Assembly: GCF_020447105.2 (NCBI RefSeq)
Contig: NZ_CP096184.1
Coordinates: 2,604,001 to 2,668,000 of the forward strand
Source: Demequina sp. TMPB413
GTDB taxonomy: Bacteria > Actinomycetota > Actinomycetes > Actinomycetales > Demequinaceae
DNA length: 64,000 nucleotides
Direction: 5' to 3'
Shown: piece by piece, positions 4,589 to 29,021 of the stretch
Layout of the letters: each line of letters starts with the position of its first letter
How positions within the stretch are numbered: the first letter of the stretch is position 1
Made by a program: the position numbers and the translations under genes
The notes under the pieces: model-generated
Told to the model about the DNA's origin: nothing
Database searches by the model: none
The model's input: only the letters and a program-made list of their open reading frames with translations

Positions 4589-6493
4589 ATGGGGGAATCG
4601 CAATTGCGCGCGACGCTGAGGTGGCTCGCACATCCGGTGTCGCTGGTGGCCATTGGCGTACTGGTGCTCAACGATCACGTGCTCAAGGCTGCGTATGGCA
4701 CGTGGTGGACGGGCAAGCTTTCCGACGTTGCCGGCCTGGTGTTCTTTCCGGCGCTCGTGGCGGTGGCGCTCGCCGCGGTGGCCCGGGTGCTGCGGCGGCC
4801 GGAGGTGCGCCAGCTTGACCTGGCCGCGGTCGCAATCACGGGCGTGGGCTTCGTATGGGTCAAGGCGACGTGGGCGGGAGCCGCGACGGCGTCGGCCGTG
4901 CTGAGTGCGATCGCCGGACCCAGCGTCGTCCGCGCCGACGTGACCGACCTGTTGGCCCTGCCCGCCCTGGGCCTCGCCGCGTGGGTCGCGGGGCGCTCGC
5001 GAACGCAAGGTAGCGCGCGTCGCGCTCGGCTCAAGAACTCGGTGACCGTCGCCGTGGTGCCGCTGGCGCTGCTCGCATCGGTCGCGACCTCCGCTTCAGA
5101 TGACCCGCACGCCAACGTGGTGGTCGACAACGAGGGGGTCACGCAGGCTTATGTCTCTGGTGTCAATGAGCACTACGAGACCGTGCGCTTCACCTATGAG
5201 AACGGCACGTGGCACGGAGTGGGCATCGAGTCGGTTCGGGCCGAGGACTACGGCTACGGGATTCCGATCCCGAATCAGACTGAGGACTGCGTCCCTTCCG
5301 ATCCGTCCGAGTGCTTCCGAGCGATGACGGGGGCGACTGGTGTGGAACGGAGTGCCGACGGTGGTGCGACCTGGGACGTTGACTGGCAACTCACCCCTGA
5401 CCAACTGGAGCAATTGGAGCACGCATATGGCAAGGCGCCTTCCGACTTTGTGACCAACGGCGTGGGCGTGGTCGCCACGAACACCGGGTTTGTGGTGATC
5501 GCGGGCAACGGCACCGACGGATTCGCGGTGCGCGACGCGAAGGGCGCCTGGGAGCGCGTCGGCTTTGAAGGGATGCCTTGTTGCGCTTGGGCGAAGACGG
5601 CCGAGCTCGGGACAGTCGACACGCTTACGGAGGTTCACGCCTTCCCCGTGTGGTTGCTGTTGGGTGTGGGCCTGGCGGCCCTTGCGGTGCCGTTCGTGGG
5701 GATCGCGCTTCGGCACAAACACGAGTTCGCTGCACCCATCAGCCTCACCGCTGGGGAATGGGTTCTCTACGGTTTCGGCGCGCTCTTTGGCTTCATCATC
5801 ATCGGAGCGAACTCCAACTATGGCCCGCTCACGCGAAGGCCCGTGTCGAGCGACGCGTTCATGATGCTGCCGGGGGGCGCAACGGTGTTGGCGCTGATAG
5901 TGATCGTGGTGGCAACTGCGGGGCTGCTCAAGCCGTGGAGAAGGGCCGCCACAATCTGGGGCTGGGTCCTCGGCGCGATCGCTGCAGGCGCCGCCTCCGC
6001 GTTGGTGCCGGGCGGCATCTGGCTGCAGTCTGCGGCTGCTGTCGCAGCGCTGGTGGCGGTCTATGCGGCGTACGTTCCTTGGGCTCGACGGAGGTTGGTC
6101 GGGTCGCAGGCTCGCCGGGTCCGGGCCGGCGCGCCTACCTGGACACAGGACGATGCTGCGGCCTTGAGGGGCGTCGGCCATGGCAGCGAGCCGACGCCAC
6201 CGCATCAGGTGTTCGCCCGGGCAGGCTACCCACAGCCTGGTTACCCGACGACGGCCCAACTCGAGGTGAGCCTGGGGCGGCTTGTTGCCTCTGGACTGGT
6301 GAGGTTCGCGGGCGTCGGCCAGTTCAGGGCGACCCGCGAAGGCCGCAGGCTGATACAGCACGGAAGTCGAGGCGAAGAAGACGCCGTCCCGCACGAGCTC
6401 GACGCGACCCTCGCGGCGCTGCGCGAAGTGCCGTGCAGGGACGGGCGCGTGCGCATCAGCGGGGAGCTGTACGACCAGGCGGTCAGTCTGTGA
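4589..6493 (+). CDS. Multi-pass membrane protein with Asp-box ectodomain and winged-helix-like tail
   Basis: 634 residues. Three or four N-terminal helices (residues ~10-165) are followed by an exported domain with an Asp-box (SADGGATW, ~residue 257) and a CCAW motif, then four helices (~350-500). The cytoplasmic tail (~520-634) has alternating helices and basic residues ending in FRATREGRRLIQHG, resembling a winged-helix unit. It is a paralogue of the first gene, which lacks this tail. No known family is assigned. Its stop codon at 6491 abuts a remnant of the repeated exonuclease gene, so the 3' end may have been reshaped by recombination. Confidence 0.65.
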   Translation: MGESQLRATLRWLAHPVSLVAIGVLVLNDHVLKAAYGTWWTGKLSDVAGLVFFPALVAVALAAVARVLRRPEVRQLDLAAVAITGVGFVWVKATWAGAATASAVLSAIAGPSVVRADVTDLLALPALGLAAWVAGRSRTQGSARRARLKNSVTVAVVPLALLASVATSASDDPHANVVVDNEGVTQAYVSGVNEHYETVRFTYENGTWHGVGIESVRAEDYGYGIPIPNQTEDCVPSDPSECFRAMTGATGVERSADGGATWDVDWQLTPDQLEQLEHAYGKAPSDFVTNGVGVVATNTGFVVIAGNGTDGFAVRDAKGAWERVGFEGMPCCAWAKTAELGTVDTLTEVHAFPVWLLLGVGLAALAVPFVGIALRHKHEFAAPISLTAGEWVLYGFGALFGFIIIGANSNYGPLTRRPVSSDAFMMLPGGATVLALIVIVVATAGLLKPWRRAATIWGWVLGAIAAGAASALVPGGIWLQSAAAVAALVAVYAAYVPWARRRLVGSQARRVRAGAPTWTQDDAAALRGVGHGSEPTPPHQVFARAGYPQPGYPTTAQLEVSLGRLVASGLVRFAGVGQFRATREGRRLIQHGSRGEEDAVPHELDATLAALREVPCRDGRVRISGELYDQAVSL

Positions 6494-6603
6494 ACCGGCG
6501 CTACATGCTGGGCATGGTGGACGCGATGCGTACGGCCAGCCAACTCACCCGCGAGGTTCGGGAGTGCGAGATCTCGGTGGAGGGCGACGAGGCTTTCTTG
6601 TGA
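6489..6603 (+). pseudogene. Remnant of the DnaQ-TerB-BRCT exonuclease gene (TerB-like part)
   Basis: Starting at the stop of the membrane protein gene, translation reads NRRYMLGMVDAMRTASQLT, matching NRHYMLGVVDA...DDQLT in the three long exonuclease copies at 15.2, 22.3 and 27.8 kb. About 75 bp are clearly homologous at DNA level before similarity fades and a stop is reached at 6601-6603. No start codon of its own is credible. It is the left member of two exonuclease fragments that bracket the giant helicase gene. Confidence 0.7.
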
Positions 6604-6735
6604 AGCGGACCACGCATCAGGATCAAGGACTGGTGGCCGTGGTTGCGCTTGATGGAGATCGCTGGCGCCCGTCTAGGTCTAGGCCAGGTCGCCAGGCCTC
6701 GATACAGTGGCGCCACCGGCTGATGAGGGGTGCTG

Positions 6736-9700
6736 ATGATTACGGGTCGCGCGGCGGTCAAACTGAGCCTTGAATGTGTAGTGGAAGGCGCTCGTACATC
6801 CATCGATAGGGCGCTCGGTGCTCAGACCAAACACGGCGACTGGGTCGCCATGTTGGAGATGCGCGACGAGGTCCGCACTCGCCGTCCCCAGCGCCACGAC
6901 GCGAGCGACCCCGCATTGATCCTTCGGGTCCTCACCGAGGAGTGGCGTTCCTTCACACCCGAACTGAGCTTCGAGCAGCGTGCTCTCGCCACCGAACTGC
7001 GTTCGGCCGCGACTCGCTGGTCGCACGGCGAGGCGTTCGGCCGGGCCGACACGCATCGCATCATCGACACCGCCGCGCGATTGCTTGACTCGCTCGGCAC
7101 GGAGGCGGCAGTACTCGCGGCTGCGGCTGCTCGGAGCCTCGCACCCCAGGTCGAAGGCGATCCCGTTGACGCCGACGCGGTGGACGTCGCCCTGATGACG
7201 GATGAGAGCGGCGCCATCGAGGCCGTGCTCACCGACGCGGAGCTCGAACGCGTGCTTGACGATTGGCGCGAACGCACCGCTTTGGGCGAGATGCGCGTGG
7301 CGCTCCCGAACCTTGAAGTACACCTCACGTTCCAGACGGCCGTGAACTTTGCCTTGTCCCACAATGGTGTCTCGCCCCTGGTAGATGTCACGGTGACGAA
7401 TGCATCGGGCGCGGACGTCGAGGTCTCCACGCTGGAGTTCGTGCTCGCGGCGGGCGAGGGAATCGACCTTGGCGCCCCGCTGGTGCTCGGCCCGCTCAGC
7501 GTGAGCGCCGGTTCCGAGCGGCACATCCCAGTTCCGCTGCTGCGGTGGCCATTCCCTTCGGCCACGCTTGCCGCGATCGACGAGGCACTCAACGCCACGC
7601 TGCGGGTGACTCTCACGTCGGCCGATGGCAGGGCCGACGCGGAGGGCACCATTCGCCTTCTGGCGGCCGACGAGTGGTGGGCAGGTGCCATTCCGGAGAG
7701 CCTTGCGGCGTTCGTCATGCCGCGCGACCCCGGCGTCGAGGGGATCGTGCAGGCCGTGTCCGCGCGCCTGGCGAGCACCACGCGCGACGGCACACTGAAC
7801 GGCTATGAAGGCGGCGCGGAGCGCGCGATCGCCATCACGAAGGGCATCTGGGACGAACTCATCGCGCTCAAGTTGTCACGTCAGCGCGCGGCGGAAGGCG
7901 GCTCCTCCGTGGCGCGGCGAGTTCGCCGCCCCAGCGTGGTGCTCGAGTCTGGGCGGGCGACGGACCTTGAGGCCGCCACGATCTTTGCATCCGTGGCGGA
8001 GGCTTGCGGGCTCAACCCGCTCATCGTTTCGGGTAGGCGCCGCGCGCTCGCTGGCGTGATGATCACCGACAGCCAGTTGCCGCTCGTGGCCATCGAAGAG
8101 GGATCCACGGTGCAGACCTTTGTCGACTCCACGATCCTGTGGCCGGTGGACACCAATGAGGCTCTCGCGCAGTCCGAGAGGTCGTTGGACGTCGCTGTCA
8201 AAAGCGCTCGCGACTGGATGCGTGAGTCTTCGCGGGAGATCGACTTCATTCTGGACGTGCGCCGGGCTCACCGCAGGGTGCGGCCGCTGCCAGTGATCCG
8301 GCGCATCGATGGCGAAGTGGTCGTGGAAGTGGAGCGACAGGCGGCGCGCGCCATCGAGCACCACAAGAACGACGCGTCGGCCTACGAGTCACGCGGCGTC
8401 AGCTACCCGCCTCGCGTCGCATCGTGGCGCAACGCGCTCCTTGACCTCACGTTCCGCAACCCGCTGCTCAACATGCGCACCCACCGCGCGGGGCTGGACC
8501 TCGCGATACCGCCTGGATACCTGGGCAGGTTTGAGGACATGCTCGCCAAGGGGGCGTCGTTCACCGTGGGCACGGCCGACGACGTCAATGCCCTGAGCAG
8601 GGCGAACGGCGTGGAGTCCACGCAGGACCTGCCAGCCGATCAGCTCGCGTCCATCATGGAGGGCGAGCACCTGCTGTACTCGCAGGTGACGTCCAGCCAG
8701 TACAACGGGCGCGTGGTGGGCTTGGCGCGCAAGGCCAAGACCGTGCTTGAAGAGACGGGCGCCAACAACCTGTACATCGCCCTCGGCTCACTGGAGTGGG
8801 AGGACACAGGACGCAAGGCCAAGGCGCCGCTATTCCTGATTCCCGCCACCATCAAGGTGCGGCGCGGCCAACTTGCCAAGATCCAGATCGAGGACGGTGC
8901 CGTCGCTGTGCCCAACCAGTGCCTCCTGGAGAAGCTGCGGGTGTCGCATCAGCTGGTCGTGCCCGCGCTGGCCAGCCCGTTGGAAGACGGCCACGGCATC
9001 GACGTAGACGACGCTCTAGCCCAATTGCGCTACGCCCTGTTGGACGCGGTGTTGGACTTCAAGGTCTCGGAGACCGCGCACCTTGCGGTGTTCCAGTTCT
9101 CTACGTTGCAGTTGTGGCAAGACGTGAGCGACAACTGGCAGCACTTCTTGGGCAACCCGGTGGTGCGCCACCTCGTGGAGACGCCTACCGACACCTTTGT
9201 GGACCCGGTGGCGGAGCCGACGATGGACGCGCAGGCCGAGGTGACCGAGGCGCTACCGGTCTCGGCTGACGGCTCGCAGATCGAGGCCGTGCGGTGGGCC
9301 GGGGTTGGCCGATCCTTCGTGCTGGAGGGCCCTCCAGGAACCGGCAAGTCGCAGACCATCACCAATATCATCGCCAACAGCCTTGCCAAGGGCAGGCGCG
9401 TGTTGTTCGTTGCCGAGAAGCAGGCGGCTCTGGACGTCGTCAAGCGCAGGCTCGATGCTGTGGGCCTCGGCCCGTACTGCCTTGATCTGCACGGGCGGAA
9501 CCAATCGCCCACGGATGTGCGCGCGCAACTACGCGCAGCGATGCACGCCCAGGTCAGTGGCTCGGCGAGCGTGGCGGAGGCGCTGTCCGCGCAGCAAAGC
9601 TCCCTGGTGAGCACGCTGGACCGCTATCCCAAGCAGCTGCACGAGCAGGGTGCTGCTGGTCTCTCCGCATGGGAGGCATCGCAGGTGGCGCTGGCGCTCG

Positions 9701-12700
9701 AGGGTTTGGTGCGGGACGCTGAGGTGCCCGACGTCTCGCTCGCCATTGCGCGGGACGGCGAGGCGTTCGCATGGACGGCAGAGGCGGCCCGCACCTTGGG
9801 TGAGGCGGTCCAGGATCTCGGCGCGCGCGTGCAGCGGCAGGCCTGGAACCTCGCCGGAACGCCCTTGCGCGACGGCGCGGACCGCGTGACGCTCGGTGCC
9901 ACCGCGGAAGGCGTGGCTCGTGCTGTAGCGGGCCTTGGCGACGGGCCCGAGCGTCGGCTCGTGGCTCAAGCGAGGTCCTACGACGAGTTTGACGTGGCGC
10001 TTGCGTTCGCAGAGCATGTGGCAGCGGGCCGCGGGCTGGACCCTGACCTGGCGGGCCCGCGCGTGGGTGCAGCGTGGCCGCAGGAAGCGGCGCGGCTCCG
10101 CGAGCAGGTGGAACAGGTGCGCACGGGCGCAAGCCAGCTACTGAGCGCGGCCCGACCCGAGCTGCTGCACCACCCCGAGCTCGAAGCGTGGGCCGTGGCT
10201 TCCCACGAGGCCGACCGCAAGTGGCTCAAGGGCCGCCGACGCAAGGCTCTGATTGCTCGCATGGCCGGGGTGCTCACCGAGGCAGGAGCAGCATCACCCG
10301 CTTCGCTCACCGCGGTGCTCGACGCCGCAGTGACGACACGTGCCTCTGCAGCGAAAGTACGGGCCGAAGCGCAGTCCCAGTTGGGCGTGGAACTCCCGCC
10401 CACGTGGAACATCCTCACGCCGCAGGGTGCTGACGAGTTCTGGAATCACGTGGAGGCGCTGTACGCGGCGGCGGGTGTCTCCCGCATGACCGACGCGGCG
10501 CGCGACGCCGCGCGGGACTTGCTGCGCGGCGATGCGCTGCCGCTCGCGCAGGCAACCACCGGCGACTCGTTCTCGTTCGGCGGGAGTTTGCTCGGCCAGG
10601 TGGCGGGTGCCGGTGCAGGGGCTTCCGCGGCCGAAGCGTCGGGCGAGGTCTCGCCGCAGGCGTCGGCTGGAGCGTCGGCCGCCACCGCGCTACGTGAGGC
10701 GTGGAAGTCTCTGCTCGAAGCGCTCGGGTCGAGACCGTCTGACGTGGCCCGTTGGATGGGTGACGACACGGTGTTGGGCGCGCTGGAGCGGGACCTGCCG
10801 GAGTGGCGCAAGGACGCCGACGGCGGCGCATTGGTGCGGCTCAGCAGGTGGGAGGCGGTGCAGTTCGAGGCGCGCCGGCTCGAAGATGTGGGCGCGGCCG
10901 AGTGGGTGGCCGAGGTGCGTGCTGGACGCATTCCAGGCGAGGACGTGGAGTCGTCGTTCAGGTTGGCCGCGGCACGTGCTGTGCTGCAGGAGCGACTCGA
11001 GGCTGCGGGCATGGTGGGCTTTGACGGTCGCCAGCGTGAGCGTCAGATCGAGCGGTACGTGGAGGGCACCGCAGCAGTGCGCGAGGCGCTAGTGACGGAG
11101 CTGCCGGCGGGGATTGTGCGGGCCAGGAGCTTCACGTCGGACAGGCTGATGGGCCGCGTGGGCGAGCTTGACCGCGAGTTGGGGCGCAAGCGCGGCGGCA
11201 TGAGCGTGCGCCGCATGCTGACGGAGTACGGCTCCGTGATCGGCGAGGTGACGCCCTGCCTGCTCATGAGCCCGCATTCGGTGGCGCGCTTCCTGCCCCC
11301 CGGTGCGATCGACATCGACGTGGTGCTGTTTGATGAGGCGTCGCAGATTCGCGTGGCCGAGGCCGTGGGCGCGATGGGTCGCGGCAAGTCCGTGGTGGTG
11401 GTGGGCGACTCCCGCCAGATGCCGCCCACGGAGTTTGGCGGCAGTGACATGTTTGGCGTGGAGGAGGACGACGAGGACGACGCCTTTGCGCCAGTGGATC
11501 AGGAGTCCATCCTTACCGAGGCAGTCGAGTCACGCTTGCCGCGGCTGTGGCTTTCGTGGCACTACCGCAGTCGCGACGAGAGCCTCATCGCGTTCTCCAA
11601 TCGCTACTACTACGAGGGCAGGCTGTCGACCTTCCCCTCCCCGCCTGGGGGTCGCGACGATGTGGGTATCTCGTGGCGTCACGTCAACGGCCAGTTTGAG
11701 CGCGGCAAGCGGCGCGTCAACCGAGCGGAGGCCGACGCCGTGGTGGCGGAGGTGCGCGCGATACTGGCGGCCAAGCCCGCAGCGTCGATCGGTGTGGTGA
11801 CGTTCAACGTCGAGCAGCGGGACTTGGTGCTTGACCTGCTGGAGGCAGCGCGTGACGAGCGGGTGGACGCGGCGTTGGCACGGCCTGAGGACCCGCTGTT
11901 CGTCAAGAACCTAGAGAACGTGCAGGGCGACGAGCGAGACGTGGTGCTGTTCACGCTTGCGTTCTCGCCGGACCCGGAGACGGGAAAGTTGCCGCTCAAC
12001 TTTGGCCCGCTCAACCGCGCGGGAGGCGAACGTCGGCTCAACGTGGCCATCACGCGTGCCCGCGAGCGAGTGGTGATCTTCTCCTCCTTCACTCCCGAGC
12101 ACATCGAGCTGGACCGTACCTCCTCCACCGGCCTGGAGCACCTGCGGGATTACCTGGCCGTAGCCGCGTTTGGCTTTGACGGCGCGCTCGCCATGCAGAC
12201 GGCGGAGCGGCGCGACCTTCACCGCGCCCGCATTGTCACGCGACTTGAGGCGGAGGGTCTGGAGGTGCGTGCGCAGGTGGGGCTGTCGGACTTCTCGGTT
12301 GACCTGGCCGTGCGCGCGCCAGGGCGCGGTTGGGTGGCTGTGTTGCTGGACACCCCCGAGTGGGCTGGCCGCAAGACGGTGGGCGACCGCGAGTCGCTCC
12401 CGCCCGCAATCCTGTGTGGTTCCATGGGCTGGGATTCCGTGGTGCGGGTGTGGCTACCGTCGTGGGTCTATGAGCCCGACGCAGTGGTGGCCTCGGTGCT
12501 GGCGGCCGCGCGGGGTGAGCGCGATGAGGCGGGCGCTCGCGAGGCCGACGAGGCGCCTGCGGAGGCAGAGCCCGTGGCCGCGGATGTCGCGGCGCATGAA
12601 GAGCCTGCCAACCATGGCGAGGCGGCGCAGCAGGACGACGCTGAGGACGGCGCGGCTGACGCTGCAGACTTCGACGCCGCGGACCCGGAGCACTTGGCGA

Positions 12701-13296
12701 CGCCGGAACTGCCGGCCGACGGGCGCCTCGAGGTGTGGCGCGAGGTGGACATGGGTGGAGTGAACCACATCACGGTGCACGATCTAAACCGCCTGCGATG
12801 GCCGACCTGCTACGGCCCGGTGACGGCAGTGGCGGACCAGATTGTGGCCGCGGAGGCCCCGCTGAGCCTTGACCGTCTCATGAAGCTCATCGGCCTACGT
12901 GCTGGCCTGAGCCGTGTAGTGGAGAGTCGCAAGGCGATGATCCGGCCGACCATTCGCTCTGGCTTGGTGCACTCGACGGTGCTGGGCGAGTTCGCGTTCC
13001 CTCAGGGCGTGCAGCCGCACGAGTACCGCAGTTTTCGGGTGGCGGCGCCTGGGGAGCGCCGCGAGCTCGCGGACATCGCGCCGCACGAGATCCTCAACGC
13101 CATGAAGGACGTGGCAGTGACGGGCCACGGCGCCGTGGCCGAGGAGGTGCTCAAAGAGACAGCGCGTCTGTTCGGATACACCCGACTCACGGCACCTGTG
13201 CGCGAGTTGCTAGCCAAGGTGCTGGACATCGCCAAGACGGCGGGTCTGGTTGAGGAGGTTGACGGGCGCGTGTTCGCGGTCGAGGGAGACGGGTAG
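6736..13296 (+). CDS. Giant DUF4011-helicase-nuclease-DUF3320 protein (Hhe-like defence ATPase)
   Basis: 2186 residues from ATG 6736 (AGGGG 5 nt upstream; GTG 6730 is possible). Order: unknown N-terminal half; DUF4011 (near 557: WRNALLDLTFRNPLLN); SF1 helicase split by a long Ala-rich insert, with Walker A GPPGTGKSQT near 864, DEAS near 1530, HYRSRDESLIAFSNRYYY near 1610 and VAITRARERVVIFS near 1770; a Vsr-like endonuclease unit near 1835-1920 (VDLAVRAPGRGW, GWDSVVRVWLPSW); an acidic linker; and DUF3320 at the C-terminus. This architecture matches large single-gene antiphage helicase-nucleases such as Hhe. The second Vsr acidic position reads LLDTPEW, so nuclease competence is uncertain. It is not in an operon. 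Confidence 0.85.
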   Translation: MITGRAAVKLSLECVVEGARTSIDRALGAQTKHGDWVAMLEMRDEVRTRRPQRHDASDPALILRVLTEEWRSFTPELSFEQRALATELRSAATRWSHGEAFGRADTHRIIDTAARLLDSLGTEAAVLAAAAARSLAPQVEGDPVDADAVDVALMTDESGAIEAVLTDAELERVLDDWRERTALGEMRVALPNLEVHLTFQTAVNFALSHNGVSPLVDVTVTNASGADVEVSTLEFVLAAGEGIDLGAPLVLGPLSVSAGSERHIPVPLLRWPFPSATLAAIDEALNATLRVTLTSADGRADAEGTIRLLAADEWWAGAIPESLAAFVMPRDPGVEGIVQAVSARLASTTRDGTLNGYEGGAERAIAITKGIWDELIALKLSRQRAAEGGSSVARRVRRPSVVLESGRATDLEAATIFASVAEACGLNPLIVSGRRRALAGVMITDSQLPLVAIEEGSTVQTFVDSTILWPVDTNEALAQSERSLDVAVKSARDWMRESSREIDFILDVRRAHRRVRPLPVIRRIDGEVVVEVERQAARAIEHHKNDASAYESRGVSYPPRVASWRNALLDLTFRNPLLNMRTHRAGLDLAIPPGYLGRFEDMLAKGASFTVGTADDVNALSRANGVESTQDLPADQLASIMEGEHLLYSQVTSSQYNGRVVGLARKAKTVLEETGANNLYIALGSLEWEDTGRKAKAPLFLIPATIKVRRGQLAKIQIEDGAVAVPNQCLLEKLRVSHQLVVPALASPLEDGHGIDVDDALAQLRYALLDAVLDFKVSETAHLAVFQFSTLQLWQDVSDNWQHFLGNPVVRHLVETPTDTFVDPVAEPTMDAQAEVTEALPVSADGSQIEAVRWAGVGRSFVLEGPPGTGKSQTITNIIANSLAKGRRVLFVAEKQAALDVVKRRLDAVGLGPYCLDLHGRNQSPTDVRAQLRAAMHAQVSGSASVAEALSAQQSSLVSTLDRYPKQLHEQGAAGLSAWEASQVALALEGLVRDAEVPDVSLAIARDGEAFAWTAEAARTLGEAVQDLGARVQRQAWNLAGTPLRDGADRVTLGATAEGVARAVAGLGDGPERRLVAQARSYDEFDVALAFAEHVAAGRGLDPDLAGPRVGAAWPQEAARLREQVEQVRTGASQLLSAARPELLHHPELEAWAVASHEADRKWLKGRRRKALIARMAGVLTEAGAASPASLTAVLDAAVTTRASAAKVRAEAQSQLGVELPPTWNILTPQGADEFWNHVEALYAAAGVSRMTDAARDAARDLLRGDALPLAQATTGDSFSFGGSLLGQVAGAGAGASAAEASGEVSPQASAGASAATALREAWKSLLEALGSRPSDVARWMGDDTVLGALERDLPEWRKDADGGALVRLSRWEAVQFEARRLEDVGAAEWVAEVRAGRIPGEDVESSFRLAAARAVLQERLEAAGMVGFDGRQRERQIERYVEGTAAVREALVTELPAGIVRARSFTSDRLMGRVGELDRELGRKRGGMSVRRMLTEYGSVIGEVTPCLLMSPHSVARFLPPGAIDIDVVLFDEASQIRVAEAVGAMGRGKSVVVVGDSRQMPPTEFGGSDMFGVEEDDEDDAFAPVDQESILTEAVESRLPRLWLSWHYRSRDESLIAFSNRYYYEGRLSTFPSPPGGRDDVGISWRHVNGQFERGKRRVNRAEADAVVAEVRAILAAKPAASIGVVTFNVEQRDLVLDLLEAARDERVDAALARPEDPLFVKNLENVQGDERDVVLFTLAFSPDPETGKLPLNFGPLNRAGGERRLNVAITRARERVVIFSSFTPEHIELDRTSSTGLEHLRDYLAVAAFGFDGALAMQTAERRDLHRARIVTRLEAEGLEVRAQVGLSDFSVDLAVRAPGRGWVAVLLDTPEWAGRKTVGDRESLPPAILCGSMGWDSVVRVWLPSWVYEPDAVVASVLAAARGERDEAGAREADEAPAEAEPVAADVAAHEEPANHGEAAQQDDAEDGAADAADFDAADPEHLATPELPADGRLEVWREVDMGGVNHITVHDLNRLRWPTCYGPVTAVADQIVAAEAPLSLDRLMKLIGLRAGLSRVVESRKAMIRPTIRSGLVHSTVLGEFAFPQGVQPHEYRSFRVAAPGERRELADIAPHEILNAMKDVAVTGHGAVAEEVLKETARLFGYTRLTAPVRELLAKVLDIAKTAGLVEEVDGRVFAVEGDG

Positions 13297-13303: not shown

Positions 13304-13419
13304 GAGGTCTTGTCGCGCACAACAGCGCGTTCGACACCGGGGCACCACTCACGGATGCTCACGCGGCCCTCGCCGACGCTGAGACCACAGCCGCGTTGCT
13401 GGCCGAACTGGTGGTGAGG
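13304..13419 (+). pseudogene. Internally deleted exonuclease remnant (ExoII and ExoIII motifs)
   Basis: Immediately after the helicase stop, one frame reads VAHNSAFDTG and then PLTDAHAALADAE, the ExoII and ExoIII blocks of the repeated DEDDh exonuclease. Compared with the long copies, about 45 codons between these blocks are missing without loss of frame, and everything before ExoII is absent. No start or Shine-Dalgarno is seen. It is the right-hand partner of the fragment at 6489-6603 around the helicase gene. Confidence 0.75.
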
Positions 13420-13429: not shown

Positions 13430-13663
13430 CTAGCTTCGGACGGCGTCGATCCGGCACAGGACCTTGACGTGATCGGGCGCGTCAAGGTTGACCCGCTCGG
13501 CAACGACCGCCAAAGGCCACCCGGCTTGAATCAAGTCGTGGACATCCGAACACAGCCAGTCAGGCACGTAGCCCACCTTGCGATCGTCAGCGGTGTTGAT
13601 GAGCACTGCACACGGATTACCGGGGCTGGCCTCATCAAGGCGGAGGTCCAGGCCAGTAGCCAT
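13430..13663 (-). CDS. Short HIRAN-like protein, possibly truncated
   Basis: 77 residues. LRLDEASPGNPCAVLINT followed by KVGYVPDWLCSDVHDLI and VNLDAPDHVKVLCRIDA resembles the second half of a HIRAN-type domain (NPxAV..., GYVP..., a closing CR strand), found alone or fused to helicases and nucleases. ATG 13663 has AAGAGG 8 nt upstream. The usual N-terminal strands are missing, so it may be a remnant. It is antisense to its neighbours. Confidence 0.45.
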   Translation of the reverse strand: MATGLDLRLDEASPGNPCAVLINTADDRKVGYVPDWLCSDVHDLIQAGWPLAVVAERVNLDAPDHVKVLCRIDAVRS

Positions 13664-18308: not shown

Positions 18309-19040
18309 TTAGGTCTCGAGGCGTTGACTCTGCCACGCATCAATACGCGCGTTGCGCGCCCGCACAAACGCGAGCGATGCGTCGCGGTAGGCGAGGTACC
18401 CGCTGACCGTCGCGGGCAGCGGGTTGGCGTCGAAGCCTGTGAAGGGCAAGAAGAAGGTGACCATGCCATCGTCGTCCAAGAGATCCTGCAACAAGAAGAA
18501 GTCGACGTAGCCGACGAAGTCCTCGAATAACGCAAAGAAGTCGCCGTACGCCTCTAGCGTGCGACTCATGGGGCTGGTGCCGCTCGCGTAGTGGAGGCGG
18601 ATGCACTCGAGGGTGAGGTCCATGCGGTCGGCGATGGCGGGGTTGAGGCCGCGTTCGCCGTTGATGGTGTGTACGCCGGGGACGCGGGTGCCGGGGAAGA
18701 CCATCATGCCGCCGATGGTGTAGCCGAGGCGCTGGAATTCGTCGAGTTCGTCGGCGGAGACCTGATTGATGATGGGCGCCGTGCGAGACCAGGTGCGATA
18801 CGAGTGGATCACCGAGTCACTGGTGAGCGTGAACTCTCCGCGCGCCGACGCGTGGTGCAGGTAGCGGCTCTTGGTGGCGGTGGTGAGAGTGAACGGCGTG
18901 CCGTCGGGTAGCGGCTTCGACCACAGGAGCTGGTGGTAACGGCGCAGGGTGGGGCTGTGGGAGTCGGGGTCCTTGCCCGCAGGGGTGTCCGTGCGGACGT
19001 CAAAGGTGGTGTCGATCGGCTCGAGACCCGCCTCAGCCAC
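18309..19040 (-). CDS. DUF6994-like protein
   Basis: 243 residues. The N-terminal block TTFDVRTDTPAGKDPDSHSPTLRRYHQLLWSKPLP and the later GMMVFPG...INGERGLNPAIADRMDLTLECIR fit the DUF6994 family as I remember it. A cluster of aromatic and acidic residues (FFALFEDFVGYVDFFLLQDLLDDD) follows. The role is unknown. Its start overlaps the end of the upstream gene by 8 nt, so the two are translationally coupled. Confidence 0.6.
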   Translation of the reverse strand: MAEAGLEPIDTTFDVRTDTPAGKDPDSHSPTLRRYHQLLWSKPLPDGTPFTLTTATKSRYLHHASARGEFTLTSDSVIHSYRTWSRTAPIINQVSADELDEFQRLGYTIGGMMVFPGTRVPGVHTINGERGLNPAIADRMDLTLECIRLHYASGTSPMSRTLEAYGDFFALFEDFVGYVDFFLLQDLLDDDGMVTFFLPFTGFDANPLPATVSGYLAYRDASLAFVRARNARIDAWQSQRLET

Positions 19041-20582: not shown

Positions 20583-20938
20583 CGAGCCCACCCCCACTCA
20601 ACGCCTCAGCCTGTTCCAAAACAGTAGCCACCGTACCCTCCGCGAGATCTGGCGGGTACCCGTACTTCTTCAGGACCCGCTTCACCATCACGCGCATCTG
20701 CGCCCGCACACTTTCCTGCAGCGTCCAGTCGATCGCAGCGTTCGAGCGCCAAGTCGACCAGTTCGTGGATCACCATCGCGGATTCGATCGCGCGGTTGCG
20801 GTACTTGATCGTCGGCGCTTCAAGCAGTTGCGAGAAGCGCCGCGCAAGCAGCACGTTCCACTTGCCGCGAACCTTGACCTCGTCCAGCAGCAGGCGCTCC
20901 AGTACCTCCAACGCGAGATTGCGCCCCGGCATGTTCAC
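20563..20938 (-). pseudogene. Type I restriction HsdR C-terminal remnant
   Basis: GRNLALEVLERLLLDEVKVR...FSQLLE...[20 protein letters not shown] is the conserved C-terminal helical domain of HsdR, the translocase-nuclease subunit of type I restriction. After this the frame changes and ~50 codons are missing. The second frame resumes with [20 protein letters not shown] and [11 protein letters not shown], the true HsdR C-terminus, ending at 20563. No HsdM or HsdS is present in the window. The piece overlaps the TPR-like gene end by 4 nt and the membrane protein start by 20 nt. Confidence 0.8.
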
Positions 20939-21489: not shown

Positions 21490-21611
21490 GGGGCAAAGGT
21501 ATGGGTGGGGTGTGACGCGCTCGTCCGATGGGATTCGACATCAGGCCGCTGACCCGCGCGCTTTGCTCGACCCCCATCCACTACCGTGGAGAGGAACTGA
21601 GGGGAGTGGTC

Positions 21612-22274
21612 ATGGCAAAGATGCCTGAGATCCTGCAAGAAGAGTCGTACTTCCAGGCCGTGCACCTGGTGCAGAGGTACTTCGGACGCACCAACGAATC
21701 TGTGCGCCATCTGGGAGCGTCCTTCGAGACGATTGGCGGTCGTTGGGACGACCCTGCGAGCATCAACGAGGTGACGCCTGGCGACCTGATCTCGTTGTCC
21801 ACGCTGTCGGTTGAGGTGAAGGGTGCCTCGGCTATAATTTTGCTCGACCCGGAGATGAGCGCGACCATGACGGCGCTACTCGAGCAGATCCCAGCAGAAA
21901 AGACCTTGTTGGACGACGACGCCCCGGCGTTGCTAGACGACGGTGGCCCCGCCGCTGAATTGTGGGACGTCGTGCGTGAAGTCCACGATTTTGGTCAGAC
22001 TCGAACGAGCAAGCTCCTCGCGCGCAAGCGTCCGCGCCTGATTCCAGTTTATGACTCGGTGATCGCGGCGGAGCTTGGAATCAGCGGCTCCCGCGATCAC
22101 TGGAAGGTGATGCGCGACCTGGTCACTCAAGATGATGGAGCACTGTGGAAGCGGGCTCAACGCATTCATGCCGAGGTGGGATTGGACGACATCGTCACGC
22201 CCCTGCGAGTCATTGACATCGTCCTATGGCGCCACGGCAAAGACATTGGACGGGTAGTCGCGGACGACTCGTGA
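21612..22274 (+). CDS. DUF6308-like protein
   Basis: 220 residues from ATG 21612 (GAGGGGAG upstream). The sequence reads as an all-helical protein with TKLLARKRPRLIPVYDSVI and a closing LRVIDIVLWRHGK, features I associate with DUF6308. These resemble HhH-type glycosylase-like folds in which a helix carries Pro-Val-Asp, but catalysis is unproven. Its stop TGA overlaps the GTG start of exonuclease copy 2 (GTGA), so the two are fused at the junction. Confidence 0.6.
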   Translation: MAKMPEILQEESYFQAVHLVQRYFGRTNESVRHLGASFETIGGRWDDPASINEVTPGDLISLSTLSVEVKGASAIILLDPEMSATMTALLEQIPAEKTLLDDDAPALLDDGGPAAELWDVVREVHDFGQTRTSKLLARKRPRLIPVYDSVIAAELGISGSRDHWKVMRDLVTQDDGALWKRAQRIHAEVGLDDIVTPLRVIDIVLWRHGKDIGRVVADDS

Positions 22275-23453
22275 CAGGCTTCGCCGTCATCGACCTGGAG
22301 ACCACGGGCTTCGCCTACAACGGCGCGGACCGCATCTGCGAGGTGGGCGTGGTCCTCCTCGACAGAGAAGGACACCGCGAGCACTCCTGGACCACCCTCA
22401 TCAACCCCCAAAGAGACCTGGGCGCCCAGCACGTGCACCACATCGACGCGACCGATGCCCGCGTCGCGCCCCGGTTTGAGGACGTCGTGGGGGACCTCAC
22501 CGAGTTGCTGGCGGGGCGGGTGCTCGCCGCGCACAACAGCGCCTTCGACACCGCCTTCCTCATCGCCGAGTATGCGCGCGCCGGGTGGCCGCTCGCACTC
22601 ACCCGCGAGGAGACGCTGTGCACCATGCGCCTGGCCCGCGCCTACGGTGCGCCCGCCAAGCTGGGCGAGTGTTGCGCGCACTTGGAGTGCCCCTCACGGA
22701 TGCTCACGCGGCCCTCGCCGACGCTGAGGCTGCGGCCGGTTTGCTCGCCGCCTACATCGCGGCGTCGGGGTCGCGGCGCGAGTGGGATGGGTGGCTCGCG
22801 TTGGGTGAGTCGTTGCGGTGGCCTGCGCCGCCTCCGCGTGGGGTGGCGCCGGTGCTCAGGGGCACGACGCGTCCCGGCAGTGCCGTGCTGGCGCGGGCGG
22901 TGGGGCACTTCGCCCCGGTGGACGACGTGGACGGCGCCGACGAATACCTTGACCTACTTGACCGTGTGCTGCTGGACAGGAAGATCTCTGTGCCCGAGCG
23001 TCGTGCGTTGGAAGGTATGGCGACGACGCTGGGGCTGGGGGCAGACGACGTGGCCCGGCTGAACCGTCACTACATGCTGGGCGTGGTGGACGCGGTGTGC
23101 GCGGACGATCAGCTCACGCGCGAGGAGCGGGCGTTCGTGATCCAGCTGGCGGGATTGCTGGACTTGGGGGACCTTGAGGTGGAGGGCTGCTGGCGGCGGC
23201 TCAGGCGCGGGTGGCGACGGTGGTCGAGGGCGTGGAGCTGAAGCCGGGGGACCTGGTGGTGTTCACGGGGTTCCCGGAGGCGCGCAAGGGGGAGCTGCGT
23301 GAGGTGGCGGAGGCTCGGGGGCTGGTGGTGTGGCCTGCTGTGAAGCGGGGTGTGGCGGCGGTGATTGCTCAGGACCCTGGGAGCGGATCGGGCAAAGCGC
23401 GCAAGGCTCGGGAGTACGGGATCCCGGTGGTGGGGGAAGGGGTGCTGCCGTGA
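22271..23453 (+). pseudogene. DnaQ-TerB-BRCT exonuclease, copy 2 (two frameshifts)
   Basis: GTG 22271 begins VTGFAVIDLETTG, almost identical to copies 1 and 3. ExoI, ExoII and the FLIAEYARAGW segment are in one frame. One T is missing from the TTT of CACTTTGGAG at ~22681, moving ExoIII (HAALAD), the TerB-like middle and the helix LLDLGDLEVEG to a second frame. One T is also missing in GAGGGTCTG (~23187), moving BRCT (VVFTGFPEARK) to a third. The same two deletions occur in copy 3. As read it gives three partial proteins. It is coupled to DUF6308 by a GTGA overlap. Confidence 0.8.
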
Positions 23454-23472
23454 CCCGGTTGTGACTCACCTA

Positions 23473-23523: not shown

Positions 23524-23542
23524 GAACTAATAAGGAGCCACC

Positions 23543-23872
23543 GTGGCCACCCGTCCCTCTCGTCCCTCCGGCGCGGCGCCGCTGCCGGTGAGGCGTGGGC
23601 TCACGCGCATCGGCGAGGACCTCGCGACGTGGCGGCGGCTTCGGCGCCTGACCGTTGCCGAGGTCGCCGACCGCGCTGGCGTGGGCGTCTCGACCGTCGG
23701 CAGACTTGAGAAGGGCGAAGGTGCCTCGCTTTCCCACACACTCGCGGTCGCGCGCGCTCTCGGAGCGCTAGACCTGCTCACGAGCGCGCTGGATCCGTAC
23801 GACACGGACCTGGGACGAGCGCGCGCCGATGAGTCGCTTCCGCAGCGTGTGCGGCGCAAGGCGACCCCATGA
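23543..23872 (+). CDS. hipB: HipB-like antitoxin/repressor (XRE family)
   Basis: 109 residues from GTG 23543 with AAGGAG upstream. A helix-turn-helix of the XRE class spans ~residues 25-75 (LATWRRLRRLTVAEVADRAGVGVSTVGRLEKGEG). It should bind the operator upstream and restrain the HipA kinase. It overlaps hipA by 4 nt (ATGA), indicating translational coupling. The N-terminus has a short Pro/Arg extension. Confidence 0.85.
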   Translation: MATRPSRPSGAAPLPVRRGLTRIGEDLATWRRLRRLTVAEVADRAGVGVSTVGRLEKGEGASLSHTLAVARALGALDLLTSALDPYDTDLGRARADESLPQRVRRKATP

Positions 23873-25104
23873 GCGAGCCCATTGAGGTCTGGAACGACGA
23901 GGTCGGCCCGACTCGCGTCGGCACGCTCTACCCGCATCGTCGCCGCGGGACGGAGTCGGCGTCGTTTACCTACGAGGGCGCCTACCTTGCCAGGCCGGAC
24001 GCGTGCTCATGGGGACCTCAGTTGCCCCTGTCCGCCGCACCGCACCACACGCCAGCTGGACACCAACTGTTCGGGGCGTTCGCGGACGGTGCCCCGGACC
24101 GGTGGGGTCGCACGTTGCTGGTCAGGCAGGAGGCCCGGCGCGCGCGTGAGGAGAAGCGTCAGGCACGTTCCTTGGGTGAGGTCGACTTCCTGCTCGGCGT
24201 GCGTGACGACTTGCGCCAGGGCTCCCTGCGATACCGCCGGGCCGACGGCCCGTTCCTGGCGACGGAGGCCGACGGAGTTCCGCTCCTGACAGACCTGCCG
24301 ACGCTCATGGATCTTGCCCATCAGGCTGAGCGCGATGCGGTGTCCCTGCCTGATCTGAACAGGTTGGTGCAAGCGGGCGGGTCGCTTGGTGGCGCGCGCC
24401 CCAAGGCGCACGTCCTCACCCGCGAGGGGCGCCTCGCGATCGCGAAGTTTCCTTCGGCGGACCGCGACACGTGGGATGTGATGGCCTGGGAGCGAGTGGC
24501 GCTCCTGCTCGCTGCCGCGGCGGGGATCGAGGTCCCGGAATCGGCGCTGCTCGAGATCGCGGGGCGGAGCGTGTTGGTGACGGAACGCTTTGACCGGCAG
24601 GGCAAGGGGGAGGACGCGGGCCGCGTGGGGTACGTGTCCGCGATGACGATGCTGGAGGCCGACGACGGCGACACCGCTTCCTACCTGGACATCGCCGCCG
24701 TGATCGAGGAGGTATCGGACCGTGCATCCGCGGACCTAGAGCAGCTGTGGCGTCGGCTGCTGTTCTCGGTGGCGATCAGCAACACCGACGATCACCTGCG
24801 CAACCACGGGTTCTTGCATCAGGCGGGTCGCGACGTGTGGCGCCTCAGCCCAGCGTTCGACCTGAACCCCGAGCCAATGCCGGGTCCGCAGCACCACAAG
24901 ACGTCGATTGACGGGTCGGACGCGCCAGCGACGGTCGCTGGTGTCATGGCAGTCGCTCGAGACTTTCGATTGCGGCCTGGGGAAGCCGAACGGATCGCGG
25001 GTGAGGTGCTCGGGGCGGTTGCCCGGTGGCGTGAGGTCGCGCGTTCCGTGGGGCTGTCCCCGTTGGCCGTGGCGGCGATGGAGCCGGCGTTCGACGGGAT
25101 CTGA
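23869..25104 (+). CDS. hipA: HipA-like Ser/Thr kinase toxin
   Basis: 411 residues. The N-terminal subdomain contains FADGAPDRWGRTLLVRQEARRAREE (HipA N-terminal motif). The kinase core shows GGSLGGARPKAHV (ATP loop), KFPSADRDTWDVMAWE, LLVTERFDR-like strand (VLVTERFDR), and the catalytic/metal motif ISNTDDHLRNHGFL followed by LSPAFDLNP. All key residues of the NxDDHxxN and D-x-N segments are visible, so it should be active. The family phosphorylates glutamyl-tRNA synthetase or other targets, causing growth arrest. Confidence 0.9.
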   Translation: MSEPIEVWNDEVGPTRVGTLYPHRRRGTESASFTYEGAYLARPDACSWGPQLPLSAAPHHTPAGHQLFGAFADGAPDRWGRTLLVRQEARRAREEKRQARSLGEVDFLLGVRDDLRQGSLRYRRADGPFLATEADGVPLLTDLPTLMDLAHQAERDAVSLPDLNRLVQAGGSLGGARPKAHVLTREGRLAIAKFPSADRDTWDVMAWERVALLLAAAAGIEVPESALLEIAGRSVLVTERFDRQGKGEDAGRVGYVSAMTMLEADDGDTASYLDIAAVIEEVSDRASADLEQLWRRLLFSVAISNTDDHLRNHGFLHQAGRDVWRLSPAFDLNPEPMPGPQHHKTSIDGSDAPATVAGVMAVARDFRLRPGEAERIAGEVLGAVARWREVARSVGLSPLAVAAMEPAFDGI

Positions 25105-25135
25105 TGCTTCTGCGACGTGCACCCCAGCGCGGCCG

Positions 25136-25666: not shown

Positions 25667-25786
25667 TCGGAGGCCTCCCAAATCTGGGCGAAGGCACGGG
25701 ATCACCACCAAACGTGATCGCGCTCGGGGCGTCGGACGTTTGCAGACTAACGGCGTGGATGACTAAGGCCGATGGGGACGCGGCCG

Positions 25787-26387: not shown

Positions 26388-27293
26388 ATGGACGCACCGA
26401 GCGGCGCAATCTATCGACTGCCGGATCGCCCTGGCAGCCTCAACCAGCTCAAGAAGTTGGGCGACGCGATCCGCGACGATGATGCTGCGGCGTATGGGAA
26501 CCTTCACTACAACGAGGTTTGGTCGTGGTCCAACGATCTCGTAGCTGCGGCAGTCCGGGACATCGGTGATCTTGATCTCGCGTCCGTGCTCGATACGCCG
26601 GCGAACGTGTCGATTACCGGGCGAGCCAAGATCAGGGCGACTGTGCGCGAAAAGCTCCAGCGCCGTCGGAGCGATAGGCTGCCGTCGATTCAGGACCTGG
26701 CGGGAGTCCGTGTTGAGGCTGACATGACGTTGACCGAACAGGACCGTGTAGCCGACGTGCTGCGGCGACACTTTGGTCAGGGAGTCGATGCTGTCCATGA
26801 CCTCCGCGACGGCGCGCACTCCGGCTATCGTGCGGTGCACCTGTGGGTGCGGCTCGACTCGCCCCGCGGTGCGTGGTTTGAGGTGCAGGTGCGCACTCGG
26901 CTTCAAGGACACTGGGCCAACATGTACGAGTCGTTCGCGGACGTGCTTGGGCGCGAGATTCGCTACGGTGCACTCCCCTCAACTGAGGGTGATCGATCAT
27001 TGGTCGAACTCGTACAGAGACTCGCCCGCCGCGAGATACTGGCGATTGAGGCAGTGAACGACATTGTTGGCAAACTTGCGCGCGAAGAGCCGGTCGATCG
27101 AGCGCTGCTTGCTCAGGCCTTCGTGATGCTCGGGTTGGAGCCGACCGTGGCGAAGCGCCGTGCTTACCAAGCGGCGCGTCCGGGCGGAATGGACCTTGCC
27201 GCGATAGCCGCAGGCACTGTCGAAGATGTCTCGGCGATCTTGACCGAGATGGAGGAACACGTACGATCATTGTCTCAAGGGAAAGGAGAGTGA
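26388..27293 (+). CDS. RelA/SpoT synthetase-domain protein (toxSAS/CapRel-like)
   Basis: 301 residues. The pyrophosphokinase core is clear: SITGRAKIRATVREKL (ATP-side basic motif, ~residue 82), PSIQDLAGVRVEAD (~105-118), GAHSGYRAVHLWV (~145-157, the substrate Tyr), and EVQVRTRLQGHW (~165-176). There is no HD hydrolase, TGS or ACT domain, so it is a small alarmone synthetase type. The C-terminal ~100 residues are helical and not part of the core. A short downstream gene in tight coupling suggests a toxin-antitoxin or phage-sensing module, in which such enzymes make (p)ppApp or pyrophosphorylate tRNA. Confidence 0.85.
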   Translation: MDAPSGAIYRLPDRPGSLNQLKKLGDAIRDDDAAAYGNLHYNEVWSWSNDLVAAAVRDIGDLDLASVLDTPANVSITGRAKIRATVREKLQRRRSDRLPSIQDLAGVRVEADMTLTEQDRVADVLRRHFGQGVDAVHDLRDGAHSGYRAVHLWVRLDSPRGAWFEVQVRTRLQGHWANMYESFADVLGREIRYGALPSTEGDRSLVELVQRLARREILAIEAVNDIVGKLAREEPVDRALLAQAFVMLGLEPTVAKRRAYQAARPGGMDLAAIAAGTVEDVSAILTEMEEHVRSLSQGKGE

Positions 27294-27294
27294 C

Positions 27295-27516: not shown

Positions 27517-27631
27517 CGCTGGCGGGTCCTGCGATCAGGGCCACCCGATTGCTGATCCGGCATGAGGTGATGCGGGGCGCGCGTCGGCGCGACGTGCCGG
27601 GACAGATCTGCTCGGAGCCGCGAGGATCCGG

Positions 27632-27745
27632 CTCTAGAAAGCGCGAAACCCGGCTCGCCCACCGTCCGGAGGGCTGCCGGGTCCATTTCTCAGGGCTACT
27701 GCCCTTCGCTCCACCGGTTTGCGCCGCGATCGGCTTGCACGTGAA
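27632..27745 (+). repeat. Hairpin-bearing repeat, copy B, upstream of exonuclease copy 3
   Basis: Matches 16955-17065. The hairpin arms are ACCCGGC (27648-27654) and GCCGGGT (27676-27682). Exonuclease copy 3 starts 72 bp after this element and has its own ribosome binding site. This makes copy B the best candidate for the native upstream region of the exonuclease gene, including its promoter. Confidence 0.7.
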
Positions 27746-27817
27746 GCGGATTCGGCGCGCCTGTGGACAACCCGCGCCCCCGCGCTACGCTCAAGACAAC
27801 TGAGGGAGGGGACCCCC

Positions 27818-29021
27818 ATGACTGGCTTCGCCGTCATCGACCTGGAGACCACGGGCTTCGCGTACAACGGCGCGGACCGCATCTGCGAGGTGGGCGTGGT
27901 CCTCCTCGACAGAGAAGGAAACCGCGAGCACTCCTGGACCACCCTCATCAACCCCCAACGAGACCTGGGCGCCCAGCACGTGCACCACATCGACGCGACC
28001 GATGCCCGCGTCGCGCCCCGGTTTGAGGACGTCGTGGGGGACCTCACCGAGTTGCTGGCGGGGCGGGTGCTCGCCGCGCACAACAGCGCCTTCGACACCG
28101 CCTTCCTCATCGCCGAGTATGCGCGCGCCGGGTGGCCGCTCGCACTCACCCGCGAGGAGACGCTGTGCACCATGCGCCTGGCCCGCGCCTACGGTGCGCC
28201 CGCCAAGCTGGGCGAGTGTTGCGCGCACTTGGAGTGCCCCTCACGGATGCTCACGCGGCCCTCGCCGACGCTGAGGCCGCGGCCGGTTTGCTCGCCGCCT
28301 ACATCGCGGCGTCGGGGTCCCGGCGCGAGTGGGATGGGTGGCTCGCGTTGGGTGAGTCGTTGCGGTGGCCTGCGCCGCCGCCACGTGGGGTGGCGCCGGT
28401 GCTCAGGGGCACGACGCGTCCCGGCAGTGCCGTCCTGGCGCGGGCGGTGGGGCACTTCGCCCCGGTGGACGACGTCGCCGGCGCCGATGAATACCTGGAC
28501 CTGCTAGACCGCGTACTGCTGGACAGGAAGATCTCTGTGCCCGAGCGTCGTGCGTTGGAAGGTATGGCGACGACGCTGGGGCTGGGGGCAGACGACGTGG
28601 CCCGGCTGAACCGTCACTACATGCTGGGCGTGGTGGACGCGGTGTGCGCGGACGACCAGCTCACGCGCGAGGAGCGGGCGTTCGTGATCCAGCTGGCGGG
28701 ATTGCTGGACTTGGGGGACCTTGAGGTGGAGGGCTGCTGGCGGCGGCTCAGGCGCGGGTGACGACGGTGATCGAGGGCGTGGAGCTGAAGCCGGGGGACC
28801 TGGTGGTGTTCACGGGGTTCCCGGAGGCGCGCAAGGGGGAGCTGCGTGAGGTGGCGGAGGCTCGGGGGCTGGTGGTGTGGCCCGGTGTGAAGAAGGGAGT
28901 GGCGGCGGTGATTGCTCAGGACCCTGGGAGCGGATCGGGCAAGGCGCGCAAGGCTCGGGAGTACGGGATCCCGGTGGCGGGGGAAGGGGTGCTTGCCGGT
29001 GGCTCGGGCGCGCGGCGGTGA
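27818..29021 (+). pseudogene. DnaQ-TerB-BRCT exonuclease, copy 3 (two frameshifts)
   Basis: ATG 27818 with GAGGGGA upstream. It is nearly identical to copy 2, differing by a few substitutions (for example REGN for REGH), and carries the same two single-T deletions (before ExoIII near 28229 and before BRCT near 28734). ExoI, ExoII, FLIAEYARAGW, HAALAD, the TerB-like middle and BRCT are all recognisable. Unlike copies 1 and 2 it is preceded by an intergenic leader rather than fused to a cargo gene, so it may occupy the ancestral locus. Confidence 0.8.

What the first reader, a model, noticed from the sequence alone, without database searches (positions are those of the whole stretch)
6489..29021. 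One exonuclease gene recurs five times and brackets accessory genes
Three long copies of a DnaQ-TerB-BRCT gene (15.2, 22.3, 27.8 kb) and two fragments (6.5, 13.3 kb) occur in 22.5 kb, all on the plus strand. Every interval between them holds a different set of accessory genes: the giant helicase; HIRAN and DUF4143; DUF3800, GIY-YIG, zinc knuckle, DUF6994, HsdR remnant and DUF6308; HipBA and RelA/SpoT. No transposase or tRNA explains the repeats. The simplest reading is that a resident gene serves as a homologous-recombination anchor through which cargo cassettes are captured. I know of no named mobile system that works this way.
Basis: partly seen in the sequence, partly recalled or inferred. 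Interest (0 to 1): 0.8.

Follow-up and report, generated by a model that had tools for sequence, protein, structure and literature searches.

The report
Repeated exonuclease gene brackets defence genes
In an actinobacterium, one candidate anti-phage nuclease gene recurs in the same direction inside a defence island, its copies are more alike than expected, and different defence genes sit beside it in related species, which suggests that shared copies of an ordinary gene may help such islands to trade their contents.

Summary
In a one-contig 2.92-Mb genome (genus Demequina by one named relative), three ~1.19-kb copies (15156-16357, 22271-23453, 27818-29021; 92-98% identical) and two remnants of one gene lie in one direction within 22.5 kb. 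The gene is PADLOC candidate PDC-S48 (DEDDh exonuclease, BRCT end, weak TerB-like middle). By my count 13 of 44 genomes of the genus hold the gene or pieces of it, beside varying defence genes. Neighbourships stacked here occur in three other species (exo-ProA helicase in G006, exo-hipBA in G001, 172-aa gene-exo in G017). Copies cluster by genome and not by position around hipBA (p 6e-56), which speaks for homogenisation if exo-hipBA is ancestral. Against the nearest held relative (81-82% in two core loci) exo is 91-95% identical, while most DNA between the shared island flanks does not align. This fits homologous recombination using the gene as a passive anchor. Capture through exo was not seen, one junction points to another repeat, and six genomes with a single copy also have differing neighbours. 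Outside the genus 2 of 20 loci have a second copy nearby. New variant of a known kind.

The parts
15156..16357 (+). Exo copy A (PDC-S48; DEDDh exonuclease, TerB-like middle, BRCT end), split by an insertion near 15455; begins 10 nt after the stop of the DUF4143 ATPase gene
22271..23453 (+). Exo copy B, two frameshifts; its GTG start overlaps the stop of the DUF6308 gene
27818..29021 (+). Exo copy C, same two frameshifts as B; keeps the upstream region shared with G032 and G017, so probably the resident copy
6491..6584 (+). Exo remnant 1 (middle part), between the 618-aa gene and the ProA helicase
   Evidence: in G006 an exo remnant also lies 68 nt before the same helicase
13314..13405 (+). Exo remnant 2, two pieces with the part between them deleted
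6736..13296 (+). Cargo: 2186-aa helicase, NCBIfam anti-phage ProA (1533 bits, cutoff 1500), PADLOC PDC-S37
13430..13663 (-). Cargo: HIRAN remnant (below Pfam cutoff)
13904..15145 (+). Cargo: AAA_14/DUF4143 ATPase, PADLOC PDC-S01
16442..16960 (+).
16954..17032 (+). 3' end of the 172-aa gene and what follows it; second copy (85%) at 27631-27709
27631..27709 (+). Second copy of that 3' end, upstream of copy C; no third one found in the genome
17065..17928 (-). Cargo: LEM-3-like GIY-YIG protein
18309..19040 (-). Cargo: DUF6994 protein
20606..20938 (-). Cargo: remnant with type I restriction T1RH-like_C match
21528..22274 (+). Cargo: DUF6308 protein
23588..25104 (+). Cargo: hipB-type HTH_3 gene (94 aa) and hipA (HipA_C, 411 aa); also bracketed by two exo copies in G001
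26388..27293 (+). Cargo: RelA/SpoT-domain protein, PADLOC PDC-S33

Best explanation
The feature is a defence-island segment built on direct repeats of one candidate defence gene, the PDC-S48 exonuclease. Shown: the repeats and their single orientation, recombination traces among the copies, exo more alike between G000 and G032 than two core loci are, and different cargo beside exo in different species. Inferred: because exo-bearing strains hold the same ~1.2-kb sequence next to different defence genes, host homologous recombination (RecA type) can cross over inside exo, which adds, swaps or deletes what lies beside it and leaves cargo bracketed by exo copies; surplus copies then decay by frameshift and internal deletion. 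The exonuclease would be a passive anchor in this; its product is probably a nuclease that took part in defence before the copies here broke.
For: All 5 pieces here, and both pieces in G001, G017 and G032 contig C10, lie in one direction. Copies group by genome: G001 intact + G001 remnant 100/100 support; pairing B with the G001 remnant, which stands on the same side of hipBA, is rejected (p 5.9e-56), as is C with G001 intact (p 7.4e-5), although hipBA itself differs between the two genomes about as much as the core (73-79% vs 72 and 74% in the longest pieces of two core loci). Site patterns among A, B and C are clustered: 68 of 95 neighbouring informative sites alike, reached by 0 of 20000 shuffles. 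G000-G032: exo 91-95%, two core loci 81-82%, flanks shared, most DNA between them not alignable. Three exo-cargo neighbourships stacked here also occur in G006, G001 and G017. Three contigs of G032 and G006 end inside exo, as expected where an assembler meets a repeat.
Against: No pair of strains with and without one cassette was available. Independent recent duplication in each lineage would also make copies cluster by genome; the case for gene conversion rests on exo-hipBA being ancestral, and the spacer between exo and hipB is only 58% alike. The 172-aa gene lies after A and its remnant before C, which one simple integration at exo does not give. A and B begin right at the stop codon of another gene, which could reflect operon fusion by illegitimate recombination. 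53512-53797 is also 95.5% identical to G032, so high identity is not unique to exo. A, B and C as one clade apart from G032 is not rejected (p 0.168). The mismatch-clustering test is not significant for A/C (p 0.13) and the G001 pair (p 0.09). G032 contigs C10 and C107 are not proven to be neighbours.
Confidence: 0.5

Rival explanations
1. Exo is a passenger: PDC-S48 is a partner gene of several defence operons. Each operon arrived with its own exo, and gene conversion among the stacked copies later made them alike. Exo played no part in the capture.
For: Exo or its remnants stand on the same strand just before a defence or island gene in several genomes: type ISP R-M in G036 and G043 (58 and 85 nt), hipBA and another gene in G001 (about 165 and 62 nt), type I hsdM in G032 (204 nt), Mrr in G006 (47 nt), ProA in G006 (68 nt). 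The family is a PADLOC candidate.
Against: The partners differ at nearly every copy; in G005, G014, G026 and G021b, and after copy C, the next gene is on the other strand, so there is no stable operon. The long exo copies here are broken while ProA, the DUF4143 ATPase and hipA are open.
Confidence: 0.27
2. Tandem duplication first, insertion later: a unit (172-aa gene + exo) was duplicated, and cargo entered between the copies by illegitimate recombination, since islands tolerate insertion.
For: Copy C and G017 share the order 172-aa gene (a remnant at C) then exo, while the intact 172-aa gene lies after copy A, as an exo-gene-exo tandem would give. Old tandem exo pair in G207.
Against: Does not by itself explain the same exo-cargo neighbourships in other species, nor exo similarity to G032 above that of the two core loci.
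Confidence: 0.15
3. An unrecognised site-specific or transposable element carries exo as its own gene.
For: Gene-sized repeat with sharp ends: homology starts 0-14 bp before the start codon in A and B and ends near the stop.
Against: No inverted repeats of 40 nt or more; at the ends of A, B and C the longest inverted matches are 6-8 nt, as between random places, and no direct repeat of 6 nt or more flanks them. No tRNA. No recombinase among the 17 genes called between the copies; an IS481 transposase lies 5.6 kb beyond copy C. Of 72,556 plasmid and 50,697 phage records, 5 and 1 match at E 1e-20, none over 80% of exo.
Confidence: 0.05
4. Assembly artefact of one locus.
For: Repeats of 92-98% are error-prone; reads were not available.
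Against: Copies have different flanks, distinct lesions and 2-8% divergence on a one-contig genome; G001, G017 and G032 also hold two pieces on one contig.
Confidence: 0.03

Closest known systems
PADLOC candidate defence family PDC-S48
   Same: Intact relative in G001 matches the model over 1-399 of 411 positions, E 9.8e-141; start of window copy C E 5.2e-59.
   Different: Known to me only as a single-gene candidate; no paper in the held library contains 'PDC-S48' (0 papers). Multi-copy bracketing is not part of the model.
IS26 translocatable-unit arrays (pseudo-compound transposons)
   Same: Direct copies of one sequence alternating with different cargo, cargo + one copy moving as a unit (recalled; only the search listing of PMC4894685 was seen).
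   Different: The repeat here is no insertion sequence: it encodes an exonuclease, and no terminal repeats stand above chance.
Multi-copy cagA direct repeats of Helicobacter pylori (PMC5358911; abstract and outline seen)
   Same: A gene in direct repeats whose number changes, flanked by homologous stretches.
   Different: There the abstract says each copy is expressed and functional; here copies are broken and bracket other genes.
Defence islands and hotspots with exchangeable content
   Same: Recurrent island gene families, variable defence genes, shared flanks.
   Different: Repeated, alike copies of one internal gene at the module borders.
diDNases, DEDD nucleases of genomic islands (PMC11706625; passages and section 27 read)
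   Same: DEDD-superfamily nuclease genes in Actinomycete genomic islands near HipA, HIRAN and R-M genes.
   Different: The paper's main text holds neither 'BRCT' nor 'TerB'; sequence relation not tested.

Membership tests
PDC-S48 (PADLOC) | Full-length match to the family model | tested here: met
   Intact relative L042:10242-11432 E 9.8e-141; window copies match in pieces only
PDC-S48 (PADLOC) | Open reading frame over the whole model in this genome | tested here: not met
   All three long copies frameshifted
PDC-S48 (PADLOC) | DEDDh catalytic residues | tested here: met
   D8, E10, D93, H146, D151 invariant in 12 intact relatives; which columns are catalytic is recalled
IS/composite transposon | Transposase inside the repeat and terminal inverted repeats | tested here: not met
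   Repeat matches RNase_T and BRCT only; ends show no inverted or flanking direct repeats above chance
Site-specific genomic island (tRNA type) | tRNA or tmRNA at the border, integrase | tested here: not met
   0 tRNA in the window and in 29 stretches of 10 genomes (G006, G020, G032 and G021 contig C5 not scanned); no tyrosine or serine integrase among the window proteins scanned
Integron cassette array | attC sites between cassettes and IntI | not tested
   No attC model was run
Gene family under concerted evolution | Copies cluster by genome and not by position | tested here: met
   C half; positional pairing rejected; holds as conversion only if exo-hipBA is ancestral
IS26-like translocatable unit | Circular intermediate of one repeat + cargo | not testable with these tools
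   Needs reads or PCR
diDNase | Deoxydinucleotide-specific activity and active-site features | not tested
   Not compared by sequence or structure

The most novel reading that the evidence does not exclude
A transposase-free way of trading defence genes: a non-mobile defence gene (PDC-S48), shared by many strains in one island, serves as the common homology through which cassettes headed or closed by that gene are added, swapped and lost by host recombination, its copies being kept alike by gene conversion, and staying useful as DNA even after they stop coding.
Probability: 0.33. Interest if true: 0.72.

Novelty: new variant of a known kind. Interest (0 to 1): 0.52.

Why it matters
How defence islands gain and lose modules without obvious mobile elements is an open question. 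Here the repeat, the differing cargo and the recombination trace lie together in one genus with many sequenced species, so the question can be tested by strain sequencing and simple recombination assays. The case also warns that a candidate defence gene that recurs beside many systems may do so because its DNA is a good recombination partner, and not because its protein works with them.

Tried and rejected
A conserved att-like site at the 3' end of exo: the end looked conserved across species by eye, but 40-nt windows show no steady rise above the rest of the gene in the pairs compared; it is the BRCT motif that is conserved. Mobile carriage: no full-length exo on plasmids or phages. tRNA-anchored island: none found. 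Terminal or target-site repeats at the copies: none above chance. The 79-bp repeat as a dispersed element: two copies only. A general habit of the family: 20 loci from 18 genomes outside the genus were examined, out of 23 full-length rows (the three on short contigs or at contig ends, G327, G258, G358, were left out). 18 of 20 show no second exo copy; L130 has a decayed direct copy and L139 an old tandem pair. Short matches of 41-60 nt in L138, L144 and L146 were dropped and not looked into. Structure prediction was not run. The genus name rests on one named record (L037), which is the same contig as G032:C10 by length and by match rows shifted by a constant.

Rows dropped: rings in 44 of 44 genomes, because the model also matches ordinary DnaQ-type and ligase BRCT genes, and its list is cut; the 13 are my count of genomes with long or family-like matches, agreeing with the same-genus rows above its weak BRCT hits. 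In one search exo was excluded in Demequina but not outside, so one of the 3 of 233 outside hits is exo itself (L130). Hits of 72 nt in G021b and 31 nt in G014 were not counted as copies; the latter is on the other strand.
Full report
What is there. The window is G000:C1:2604001-2668000 of a one-contig genome of 2,920,349 bp. Three ~1.19-kb copies of one gene (A 15156-16357, B 22271-23453, C 27818-29021) and two remnants (6491-6584; 13314-13405) lie in one direction in 22.5 kb; B/C 97.6%, A/B 92.5%, A/C 91.7%. No other copy was returned from the genome. All three long copies are broken: A by an insertion, B and C by the same two length changes.

What the gene is. The start of copy C matches RNase_T and PADLOC PDC-S48 (E 5.2e-59). 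An intact relative in G001 matches PDC-S48 over 1-399 of 411 positions (E 9.8e-141). A profile of 12 intact relatives finds DnaQ/PolC exonucleases (best E 1.5e-20), DNA-ligase BRCT regions (E 2.8e-5 and weaker) and, weakly, a tellurite-resistance (TerB-type) protein (2ou3, E 0.015) in the middle. So DEDDh at the start and BRCT at the end are sound; TerB is only suggested. The columns I take as catalytic are invariant in the 12.

What lies between. ProA anti-phage helicase (NF058533, 1533 bits against a cutoff of 1500), a HIRAN remnant, the DUF4143 ATPase PDC-S01, a 172-aa gene without Pfam match, GIY-YIG, DUF6994, a type I restriction remnant, DUF6308, HipBA, DUF6933 and RelA/SpoT. Beyond copy C follow an AAA_15/OLD-like ATPase, a type ISP remnant, an IS481 transposase, a Schlafen-type helicase and a DUF499/DUF1156/SNF2 cluster. 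All 17 genes called between the copies were scanned; none is a transposase or integrase.

In the genus. By my count 13 of 44 genomes hold the gene or pieces of it (the PADLOC model as such rings in all 44 through other DnaQ-type genes): G000, G001, G005, G006, G014, G016, G017, G020, G021, G026, G032, G036, G043. Six have one intact copy and no counted second piece in the 60 kb examined (G005, G014, G016, G026, G036, G043). G021 has two intact copies on two contigs, 69% alike. G001 has one intact copy and one with an internal deletion, with hipBA between. G017 has a 5' piece and a 3' piece with two genes between, one matching GmrSD_C. G032 has a deleted copy and another that runs off contig C10; contig C107 ends in exo with a 49-nt overlap, so it may be the same copy. 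G006 has pieces on two contigs, both with the 3' end, hence two copies. G020 has one partial copy. The counted pieces that share a contig lie in one direction.

Other cargo. Many island genes recur around exo across species. Between G000 and G032 (two core loci 81-82% identical) the left flank (MFS gene 85%, 618-aa gene 67-86%) and the right flank (59336-60165, 87-88%) are shared. Between them, DNA matches of at least 80 nt are exo (91-95%), 53512-53797 (95.5%), 54652-54871 (88%), 58541-58748 (81%) and 58102-58373 (73%); one further gene (51580-52506) has a 40% protein match. G032 carries a type I R-M system after exo. Three neighbourships collected in G000 occur elsewhere: an exo remnant 68 nt before ProA in G006 (89% aa), exo before hipBA in G001 (80% and 83% aa), and the 172-aa gene before exo in G017 (51% aa). 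In G036 and G043 whole type ISP R-M genes stand 58 and 85 nt after exo, and only a type ISP remnant is left in G000.

Recombination among copies. If exo-hipBA-exo is ancestral to G000 and G001 (hipBA 73-79% identical, the longest core pieces 72 and 74%; but the spacer between exo and hipB is only 58% alike), B should pair with the G001 remnant. Instead the G001 pair is held together with 100/100 support, and B + G001 remnant is rejected with p 5.9e-56; C + G001 intact with p 7.4e-5. If the neighbourship is not ancestral, separate recent duplications would explain the same tree. The first 89 nt of the two G001 copies are identical and another 466 aligned positions are 87.6% identical. Among A, B and C, 98 sites vary; the pairings they support (66 BC, 19 AB, 11 AC, 2 none) are clustered along the gene, 68 of 95 neighbours alike, reached in 0 of 20000 shuffles. 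Mismatch clustering per pair: A/B p 0.0057, B/C p 0.0001, A/C p 0.13, G001 pair p 0.09.

Junctions. C shares its upstream region with G032 and G017, and next to it lies a remnant of the 172-aa gene, whose homologue stands at that place in G017; C is therefore the likely resident copy. A begins 10 nt after, and B overlaps, the stop codon of another gene (DUF4143 ATPase, DUF6308); the deleted copy in G032 begins 2 nt after one. The ends of A, B and C show no inverted or target-type repeats above chance. The 3' end of the 172-aa gene is repeated at 16954-17032 and 27631-27709 (85%) and was found nowhere else, so the 10.6-kb block between may have entered through that repeat and not through exo.

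How unusual. Of 417 other genes of 200 aa or more in the Demequina regions, 14 have a same-strand DNA match nearby; exo passes that yardstick in 3 of 13 genomes. Outside the genus, 2 of 20 loci show a second exo nearby. The habit is thus mainly one of this genus, within the exo group that includes G000, G001, G032, G017 and G006.

Mechanism and verdict. I hold homologous recombination through a shared, passive anchor gene to be the most likely account (0.5), with the passenger reading next (0.27). The repeats, the recombination traces and the differing cargo are shown; capture through exo is inferred. Literature: 'PDC-S48' is in no paper of the held library, and searches around defence candidates, defence islands, repeated genes, gene conversion and exchange by homologous recombination listed no paper that by title or abstract start describes this arrangement. 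Only listings were seen, apart from PMC11706625 (section 27 and passages) and PMC5358911 (abstract and outline).

Noticed in passing
window 53624-54814 and 58494-58750: A 396-aa gene and a fragment of it (94-95% identical over 171 and 76 nt) 3.9 kb apart in direct orientation; G032 shares 53512-53797 at 95.5%.
   Followed up: no
window 34323-34643; L049 10511-15316; L050 10613-15451: A type ISP R-M C-terminal remnant here, while whole 1601-1612-aa type ISP genes stand 58 and 85 nt after exo in G036 and G043.
   Followed up: partly
window 38182-50143: Cluster of SNF2-type helicase, DUF1156 methylase-like, DUF7680, DUF499 and a GmrSD restriction gene, a further defence-type block of the island.
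   Followed up: no
window 34661-35668: IS481-type transposase gene 5.6 kb beyond copy C.
   Followed up: no
L130 8818-8952: Outside the genus (G257), a decayed direct exo copy (88-91% DNA identity) upstream of the intact one with a 111-aa gene between.
   Followed up: partly
window 15455-15465: In copy A the first ORF's TGA stop overlaps a TTG start of the second ORF, so the split gene could in principle be made as two chains.
   Followed up: no
L054 8722-10736: Two Excalibur-domain genes, one with a GmrSD_C match, between the 5' and 3' pieces of exo in G017.
   Followed up: partly
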